Below, in pieces: positions 22,124 to 23,680 of a stretch of DNA of 64,000 bases. Where the stretch lies: the NCBI GenBank assembly GCA_937146765.1, contig CAKZRP010000037.1, positions 124,001-188,000 of the forward strand. The letters are read 5' to 3'. The notes under the pieces are model-generated. The model was not told the DNA's origin, searched no databases, and saw only the letters and a list, made by a program, of their open reading frames with translations. Position numbers and translations under genes: made by a program. This DNA comes from an uncultured Paracoccaceae bacterium (GTDB taxonomy: Bacteria > Pseudomonadota > Alphaproteobacteria > Rhodobacterales > Rhodobacteraceae). Every line of letters starts with the position of its first letter. Position 1 is the stretch's first letter.

Positions 22124-22278
22124 TCAGCTCTTGCGCACCAGAGGGGCTGCCGGATTGCCTACCACCGTGGCATTGGCGGGGACGCTCTTGGTGACGACGG
22201 CGCCCATGCCAACCACTGCCCCGGCGCCAATAACGGTGGGGTTATCGGGCGTGCCTTGTTTGATCACTGTCTCTGGAC
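22124..22278 (-). pseudogene. C-terminal fragment of a hexapeptide-repeat acyltransferase
   Basis: The last ~50 codons of a left-handed beta-helix acyltransferase (TVIGAGAVVGMGAVVTKSVP, then ANATVVGNPAAPLVRKS and stop at 22124). The hexapeptide pattern and VVGNPAAPL ending are typical of sugar O/N-acyltransferases of the NeuD/PglD/LpxA kind. The 5' part is missing: the dead insertion sequence starts at about 22279 and its far side holds unrelated integrase sequence. Such genes often belong to surface-polysaccharide clusters, so this may be the remains of one. Confidence 0.75.
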
Positions 22279-23009
22279 GTTGTTGCAGAACTGCTGGCTG
22301 AGGGGTGAGTGTCCCTTTCCCGTTCAGGTTTAGGCCACGCGGACGACCTCGGCGGTGCCGAGCACGTTGAAGCGGTTGATGAGTGCGACGCGGATGTGGA
22401 TTTCGGCGGTCTGGCGGTCTGGGTCTCTCGCGGCGATGCGCTCCCCGAAGGCTTTCAGGCATCGCATCTTGGCCTCCACGCGGCTGCGGGCGTGGTATCC
22501 GGTCCACCGCTTCCAGAACGCCCGACCGAAGTGACGCCTGGCGCGGAGGGTTTCGTTGCGCGCCTTGGCAGCCGGGCAGTCTTCTTTCCAAGCCCGACCG
22601 TTCCTTCGGATGGGTATGATCGCCGTGCCGCCACGTGCGATGATGGCGCCATGGCAGCGACGCGTGTCCTAGGCTCCATCGGCAGTTACGGTGCCGATGT
22701 CCTCGTCCTCGGGGATCTGGCCCAACAGGTCCGGCAGGACGGGGCTGTCCACTGCCCGGCAGTGGTTTGCGCAGCACAACCATGAGAGGGCGCCGTCGCC
22801 AAGAAACTTGATGCCGGTGCTGTCCACCAGCAGGTTCAGCGGCCCGCCGGCGCGGCGATAGGGGATCTGCACCTTGAGGGTTCGATGGGCTTACGCGGCC
22901 CCACTGGGGCCACGGTCCCATCTCACTCTGTCTGCGGCACAGCGTCGAGTAGTCCGGAACGGGCCAGTCCAGCCCTGCCAAGCGCAGGAGGCTCGCGACC
23001 ATCCCGTTC

Positions 23010-23043
23010 GCCAGTGGGCTCGGACCAATGGCGCCTCACTGGC
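23010..23043. repeat. 34-bp hairpin insert, copy A, in the dead transposase
   Basis: Stem GCCAGTG/CACTGGC (23010-23016 with 23037-23043) around a conserved GCTCGGACCAATGGCGC centre. Removing 37 bases (23009-23045) restores the transposase frame. Copy B lies exactly 205 bases away. Confidence 0.7.
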
Positions 23044-23214
23044 TCACTCTGCCTGAGCGGCAACTTGAACAGAACCTTGATGGATAGGCAGAACTGGATC
23101 GCGGCATTCGAAAAGACCGGCGGGCGCCCCGGGCGTCCCTCATCCGGCGCGAGCCAAGTCATCTCCTTGTCCAGCCAGATCAGCAGTGACCCGCGCTTCC
23201 TGAGCGCATCCCTC

Positions 23215-23248
23215 GCCATTGTGCTCGGACCAATGGCGCATCAATGGC
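23215..23248. repeat. 34-bp hairpin insert, copy B, in the dead transposase
   Basis: Stem GCCATTG/CAATGGC (23215-23221 with 23242-23248) with the same centre as copy A. All four differences from copy A fall in two base-paired positions and keep pairing. It interrupts the transposase between its STY and RDALRKRG segments. Confidence 0.7.
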
Positions 23249-23365
23249 TCGATAGGTGGACCAGTTCGTAGTGCGGTAGCGGGCGGGCTTGGGCTTGCTC
23301 ATGCCGCTCGTCTAACCGAATGGATTCGTGATGTGAATCCTTCACGGTAGAAGTTCTGCAACACC

Positions 23366-23533
23366 ACCACGCGCTTGCTTCGGGTTGGTCTTTCACTGTC
23401 GCAAATTGCGGGCTGCATGGGGTGGTCGCTGCGCACGGCGGCGGCAATGATCGAGCGCTATGCGCAGGTTTCGCCGAGCGAAACGGATGACGTCTTGACG
23501 CTGCTGAGTGCCGAGCGAAAGGGCAGAGCATGA
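23366..23533 (+). pseudogene. C-terminal tail of a tyrosine-type integrase
   Basis: An open frame with no start, entering from the IS end and stopping at TGA 23531-23533. It reads GLSLSQIAGCMGWSLRTAAA, then MIERYAQVSPSETDD and ...LLSAERKGRA. The G-W-S...A..MIxRYA pattern resembles the last helix and catalytic-tyrosine region of phage/island integrases of alphaproteobacteria. It ends 73 bases from the 3' end of tRNA-Cys, the usual position of an island integrase. The assignment rests on pattern memory of a short stretch. Confidence 0.6.
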
Positions 23534-23606: not shown

Positions 23607-23680
23607 TGGAGGCGAGTACCGGAATCGAACCGGTGTACACGGATTTGCAATCCGCTGCGTCACCACTCCGCCAACTCGCC
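23607..23680 (-). tRNA. tRNA-Cys (GCA)
   Basis: Minus-strand cloverleaf: acceptor stem GGCGAGT (from 23680) with ACTCGCC (23617-23611), anticodon loop TTGCAAA with GCA, T-loop GGTTCGATTCC, and an encoded CCA (23609-23607). Its 3' end faces the integrase tail and the dead IS, which suggests it served as an attachment site. Confidence 0.96.

What the first reader, a model, noticed from the sequence alone, without database searches (positions are those of the whole stretch)
23009..23250. A 34-bp hairpin element inserted twice in a dead transposase, with compensatory stem changes
Seen directly: two 37-base copies (23009-23045 and 23214-23250) differ at only four positions. These four are two paired positions (G-C in copy A, T-A in copy B, at 23014/23039 vs 23219/23244 and 23017/23035 vs 23222/23240), so the hairpin is kept while its sequence drifts. 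Both copies break the IS5 transposase frame, and removing copy A restores LRQ-SNG-MVASLL. Inference: these are insertions of a small mobile palindrome, or the hairpin is selected as a structure. The conserved centre GCTCGGACCAATGGCGC may be what an enzyme recognises.
Basis: partly seen in the sequence, partly recalled or inferred. Interest (0 to 1): 0.72.

Follow-up and report, generated by a model that had tools for sequence, protein, structure and literature searches.

The report
Mobile hairpin that swaps five bases
Two hairpins in a broken transposon gene are copies of a 42-base element scattered through one family of bacteria, where each copy stands in place of about five bases of its target; it is likely a tiny mobile element, moved by an enzyme that has not been identified.

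Summary
The two segments are copies (42 nt, window 23006-23047 and 23211-23252, minus strand) of a dispersed hairpin family. A covariance model finds it in 193 of 394 genomes of the host's family (E 1e-3); a class-wide draw gave 2 of 289, both in that family (E 1e-5). The 15-nt loop CGCCATTGGTCCGAG is kept while the stem changes on both sides (13 of 14 pairs). Many copies have a foot NYGA...GARN, a tandem G.A mismatch closed by two covarying pairs (57 and 50 of 58 copies). Filled against empty sites show a swap, not a target duplication: net +36 to +38 in 31 of 34 comparisons, so about 5 nt of target are lost. Copies sit inside one another and at unrelated sites of one genome. Copy A recurs, identical or nearly so, in four other IS5 genes with flanks 60-86% like the window's; this is unexplained. 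RAYT, reverse transcriptase and TnpB are missing from some element-bearing genomes. Best reading: a REP-like, non-autonomous mobile hairpin of new anatomy. Its enzyme is unknown and movement was not observed.

The parts
23006..23047 (-). Copy A: family-1 hairpin, GTGA foot, 7-bp stem, loop CGCCATTGGTCCGAG, GAAC foot, 42 nt; at site A (LRQ|TAG of the transposase)
   Evidence: R1 58.7 bits, E 1.8e-13; net +37 against empty relatives
23211..23252 (-). Copy B: family-1 hairpin, TCGA foot, 7-bp stem, same loop, GAGG foot, 42 nt; at site B (WSxY|N)
   Evidence: R1 59.0 bits, E 1.6e-13; net +38 against empty relatives
22880..22926 (-). Family-2 hairpin: GTGA, stem GATGGG/CCCATC, another loop, GAAC, 47 nt
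   Evidence: Net +43 against the empty relative; same feet in 6 of 14 fetched family-2 members
22753..22789 (+). Family-3 hairpin, TGCCCGGCA...GAGAGG
   Evidence: Pattern hit at G000:C37:146753-146789; insertion seen
22330..23302 (-). Remains of the IS5-type transposase gene that carries the hairpins
   Evidence: tblastn pieces of an intact relative in three frames; that relative matches DDE_Tnp_1_5 and DDE_Tnp_1

Best explanation
The two segments are copies of a 42-nt hairpin that is likely a non-autonomous mobile element, predicted to be recognised as a folded single strand through its fixed 15-nt loop and its tandem G.A foot, and each copy stands in place of about five bases of its target. 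Shown: dispersal within one bacterial family, a fixed loop with covarying stem and feet, about 5 nt lost at filled sites, nesting, and near-identical copies at unrelated sites of one genome. Inferred: that the folded strand is what moves, that a trans-acting enzyme of this family moves it, and that old transposase genes hold so many because hits there are tolerated. Predicted cycle: the hairpin folds from exposed single strand, the enzyme excises or copies it, the target is opened, and joining drops the bases between the cuts. Not tested: whether the strand is DNA or RNA, and which enzyme acts.
For: Exact 17-mer in 64 of 394 family genomes, reversed-pattern control 0 in the rows printed; model R1 in 193 of 394. 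Stem: 13 of 14 pairs with changes on both sides, covariation score 0.256 against 0.109 in shuffles, 0 of 500 as high. Feet: inner pair 57 of 58 (37 expected), outer pair 50 of 58 plus 7 wobbles (26 expected, 0 of 20,000 permutations). Net change +36 to +38 in 31 of 34 filled/empty comparisons. Nested copies with the uninterrupted copy in the same genome, L185 against L187, L189 and L190 of G312. Eleven pairs in six genomes at least 93% identical with flanks under 50%. Up to 41 loop matches in a genome, controls 0 or 1.
Against: No movement was seen. No enzyme was found. At site A the insert is far more alike than its flanks, which neither plain inheritance nor random insertion predicts. Energy support for the fold is weak, and copy B prefers another fold. 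Copies were first collected by the exact centre, so the fixed loop is partly by design; matches with a changed loop exist but were not surveyed evenly. The one same-genus genome (G293) has no R1 match at E 1e-3, though two loop matches with one mismatch. Template switching could mimic compensatory change.
Confidence: 0.6

Rival explanations
1. The hairpin works in place, as RNA: it is tolerated in transposase messages because it is bypassed, removed or read through, and its structure is selected there so that IS copies carrying it keep moving.
For: Identical arms at site A in IS genes with diverged flanks; an IS3 transposase frame of 460 aa stays open with hairpins inside; 52 of 86 distinct type-1 elements are open in all six frames, against 151 of 1,720 shuffles.
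Against: Copies lie on both strands of transposase genes (site C is antisense) and outside genes; net +37 and +38 need different frame corrections; the window gene has further lesions.
Confidence: 0.12
2. Compensatory changes come from replication slipping between the arms (quasipalindrome correction), not from recognition of a structure; the element is an old scar that spreads inside IS copies and by recombination.
For: In some genomes loop and right arm changed together: 7 of 10 TC-loop copies have a TC right arm against 4 of 192 TT-loop copies (not independent). Several IS copies of G046 share the same inserts.
Against: Stems with no resemblance to each other still pair around the same loop; nested copies and unrelated sites need insertion events; the feet covary beyond the tandem mismatch.
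Confidence: 0.13
3. It is a REP moved by a RAYT (TnpA-REP, Y1 transposase).
For: Small hairpins, tens of copies per genome, both strands; RAYTs read loop and stem irregularities of a folded single strand (passages of PMC8266576).
Against: No GTAG foot; loop of 15 nt; no Y1_Tnp match in element-bearing G046, G312, G018, G208, G366, G065, G125 or in the host genome.
Confidence: 0.07

Closest known systems
GTAG-tagged REPs and REPtrons (RAYT)
   Same: Short single-unit hairpins, many copies, in spacers; likely recognised folded
   Different: No GTAG foot, a 15-nt fixed loop with a free stem, no resident Y1 transposase in several element-bearing genomes
CGTC-tagged repeats of alphaproteobacteria, including Rickettsia RPE-4 and RPE-6
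   Same: Alphaproteobacterial palindromes without a known transposase (PMC3733652)
   Different: Those have 8-9 bp stems, 4-5 nt loops, an unpaired CGTC end and often a CCA tail; here the loop is 15 nt and GTC pairs with GAC
Rickettsia palindromic elements (RPE)
   Same: Palindromes found inside genes, some in frame
   Different: RPEs are 105-146 bp (passages of PMC2229807); here 41-42 nt with a five-base swap
RUP of pneumococcus
   Same: Small element that fills IS transposase genes of several families (passages of PMC2229807)
   Different: RUP has terminal repeats like IS630-Spn1, TA targets and target duplication
MITEs such as MITEPye1 of Paracoccus
   Same: Non-autonomous, same bacterial group
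   Different: MITEPye1 has 18-bp terminal repeats of IS1182 type and 4-bp direct repeats (passages of PMC11578231); here the arms are not of fixed sequence and no duplication is seen

Membership tests
GTAG REP | Conserved GTAG tetranucleotide at the 5' foot | tested here: not met
   Feet are NYGA/GARN or GTY/GAC
GTAG REP | RAYT (Y1_Tnp) as partner in the genome | tested here: not met
   Match in 5 of 16 genomes; none in the host genome or in G046, G312, G018, G208, G366, G065, G125
CGTC REP | Unpaired CGTC end, stem 8-9 bp, loop 4-5 nt | tested here: not met
   Loop 15 nt; in type 1 the terminal GTC pairs with GAC
RPE | 105-146 bp long | tested here: not met
   41-42 nt in 97 of 143 typed copies
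RPE | Sits in frame inside protein genes | tested here: inconclusive
   In frame in an IS3 ORF and by size where net +36; out of frame at sites A and B
MITE | Target site duplication | tested here: not met
   About 5 nt lost in 31 of 34 comparisons
MITE | Fixed terminal inverted repeats shared with an autonomous IS | tested here: inconclusive
   Arms vary widely; no search for an IS with these ends was made
Known structured RNA | Match to an Rfam family | tested here: not met
   No family reached its gathering score in window 22200-23450; best 19.8 bits, E 0.08. In 12 loci only three tRNAs did
RUP-like IS filler | Mobilised by the transposase of a resident IS | not tested
   No candidate IS identified

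The most novel reading that the evidence does not exclude
A new class of mobile hairpin: a folded strand with a covarying tandem G.A foot, shared by at least two families with unrelated loops, is pasted over about five bases of target by an enzyme that is neither RAYT, reverse transcriptase nor TnpB.
Probability: 0.3. Interest if true: 0.82.

Novelty: new variant of a known kind. Interest (0 to 1): 0.62.

Why it matters
How very small palindromes spread without a transposase of their own is open for CGTC-type repeats (PMC3733652). This family offers insertion events that can be read base by base (nested copies, filled and empty sites, size changes of 36-38), and a lineage boundary, one bacterial family, within which the enzyme can be sought in organisms that grow in the laboratory. 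It may also account for part of the decay of IS5 and IS3 genes in this group.

Tried and rejected
Target duplication: AATGA on both sides of the copies at site C (L063, L096, L145) looked like a 5-bp repeat; alignment to empty sites showed a loss of about 5 nt instead. Palindromic target preference: no sign of it in 28 distinct sites (permutation p 0.62). RAYT, reverse transcriptase and TnpB as resident drivers: Y1_Tnp in 5 of 16 genomes, RVT_1 in 4 of 13 (3 over cut-off), PF07282 in 8 of 13 at E 1e-3 but only 2 over cut-off; G000, G046 and G125 match none of the three. Alignment A2 was out of register between types and was dropped; A1 holds short type-2 rows shifted by one pair, which lowers its paired percentage. 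Counting copies inside genes by open frames was given up because GC-rich frames are open by chance. A first count of the outer foot pair demanded pairing in its own filter and was replaced by an unfiltered one. Literature: no held paper has the loop or its near variants in either strand; searches on palindromic elements in Rhodobacteraceae or Roseobacter, on target deletion, and on repeats in Paracoccus and Rhodobacter listed no description of this family that I could recognise. Most subscription papers are not held.

Full report
Check of the observation. One changed pair is in register in the stem; the other pairs across one bulged base. Energy alone is weak evidence: z between -1.5 and -2.8, and copy B prefers a fold in which the centre pairs with one arm. 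Both score about 59 bits with a model built from relatives that includes them.

The unit. On the minus strand copy A is GTGA-GCCAGTG-AG-GCGCCATTGGTCCGAGC-C-CACTGGC-GAAC and copy B is TCGA-GCCATTG-AT-GCGCCATTGGTCCGAGC-A-CAATGGC-GAGG, 42 nt each. Copies collected by the exact 17-mer centre in family genomes and in GTDB contigs gave 179 distinct hairpins, 157 of them with the exact centre. By their feet 112 are type 1 (GTY...GAC; 41 nt in 75), 31 are type 2 (42 nt in 22) and 36 were not assigned. The loop CGCCATTGGTCCGAG stays, in part because it was the bait, while the stem takes quite different sequences (GGGGCG/CGCCCC in L143, AGCGTCGC/GCGATGCT in L050). On 50 chosen copies 13 of 14 pairs have changes on both sides.

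The feet. Among copies with NYGA before and GARN after a paired stem, with no demand that the two outer letters pair, 58 distinct ones gave GTGA/GAAC 32, ATGA/GAAT 8, TCGA/GAGG 7, CTGA/GAAG 4, GCGA/GAGC 4 and three single others. The inner pair is Watson-Crick in 57 of 58; the outer in 50 of 58, with 7 wobbles. The GA on each side would form a tandem sheared G.A step; that name is recalled and the geometry is inferred. A second family with another loop has such feet in 6 of 14 fetched members, all six paired (GTGA/GAAC 4, GCGA/GAGC 1, ATGA/GAAT 1). One member interrupts the window gene at 22880-22926 (net +43).

Filled and empty sites. Of 174 copies queried against the fetched loci 37 had a candidate empty homologue, and 34 could be measured: net +37 in 16, +36 in 8, +38 in 7, and +34, +35 and +39 once each. 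They stand for 28 distinct sites. With an element of 41-42 nt this is a loss of about 5 nt. Examples (boundaries set by eye): CGACG|CCAAT|GGCGC in L140 against L117; the loop of another copy, CTCGGA|CCAAT|GGCGC, in L167 against L060; GCG|CCATT|GGTCC in L185 against relatives in the same genome. The base after the element is G in 26 of 30 type-2 sites, also where the empty site has another letter (L033, L217, by eye), so the unit may be a base longer at that end. Targets are no more palindromic than their surroundings.

Movement. In genome G312 the uninterrupted repeat is present beside the interrupted one. Eleven within-genome pairs in six genomes are at least 93% identical with flanks under 50% alike. 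The family is lineage-bound: 193 of 394 family genomes at E 1e-3 (only 16 candidates per genome were scored, so its copy counts saturate), against 2 of 289 in a class-wide draw at E 1e-5, both in the host's family. The cut-offs differ, so the contrast is qualitative. By the loop with up to one mismatch 20 of 25 chosen genomes have a match, from single hits that chance can give to 41 in G321; the control counts are 0 or 1.

Where it sits. Seven peptides that looked like transposases were picked from the 28; with one whole IS5 relative and the ORF of L271, 9 of 9 match a transposase or integrase family at E 0.01, two of them only below the curated cut-off. Other copies follow a terminator-like repeat AAATAYYCCGGGG: 19 such places hold a copy within 45 nt and 16 do not, of which at least four hold a variant, nested or more distant copy. 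No fraction of copies in genes is claimed. In plasmids, copies like A lie in Paracoccus, Ruegeria, Leisingera and Tritonibacter (12 records). Two of them have the stem of A, or nearly, at another site (L264, L265), so that stem is not confined to site A.

What does not fit. Site A holds the same insert in the window, L117, L128, L063 and L084: arms identical, 0.96 for L084, with flanks 0.60-0.86 against the window. Neutral inheritance should have worn the insert as much as its flanks. Repeated hits of one site, constraint in place, or continued copying between inserts are open. In some genomes loop and right arm changed together (7 of 10 TC-loop copies against 4 of 192 TT-loop copies, not independent), which may reflect the alternative fold or template switching.

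Driver. Y1_Tnp is in 5 of 16 genomes, RVT_1 in 4 of 13, PF07282 in 8 of 13 at E 1e-3 but over its cut-off in 2. The host genome, G046 and G125 match none of the three, so none is needed as a resident; a lost driver is not excluded. RUP of pneumococcus is a precedent for a small element that fills IS genes (passages of PMC2229807).

Verdict. Ordinary in kind, a small mobile palindrome; unusual in anatomy (fixed loop, free stem, covarying G.A feet, five-base swap) and in its unknown driver. Papers seen: PMC3733652 (abstract, background, start of results, section 6, passages); PMC2229807, PMC11578231 and PMC8266576 (passages); all others only as search listings.

Noticed in passing
window 22753-22789 (+); genome G007: A third hairpin family, TGCCCGGCA-stem-GAGAGG, with fixed feet and freely varying complementary stems: 35 pattern hits in G007, control 0; also in the window gene and in L157, L158 and L160. 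Its insertions do not show the clear five-base loss.
   Followed up: partly
L063, L145, L140: A fourth hairpin insert around GAAACGATCCCCCGGATCGTTTCC in IS5 genes.
   Followed up: no
L271, 330-1712: An IS3 transposase ORF of 460 aa on a Paracoccus marcusii plasmid stays open although a family-2 hairpin and, by eye, further hairpin-like inserts lie in frame in it.
   Followed up: partly
L054, L069, L089, L108, L132, L136: A repeat context that recurs between AGCGCC and GGGGGCGG holds the hairpin in some places and GCCCCAT in others.
   Followed up: partly
window about 23609-23680; L140, L063, L226: A sequence that reads like a tRNA-Cys gene (by eye) lies beside the IS5 remnant; three loci with such IS remnants also hold a tRNA.
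   Followed up: no
L244-L248 (genome G312): The hairpin is part of a longer repeat, with about 100-250 bp alike, at the ends of several contigs.
   Followed up: no
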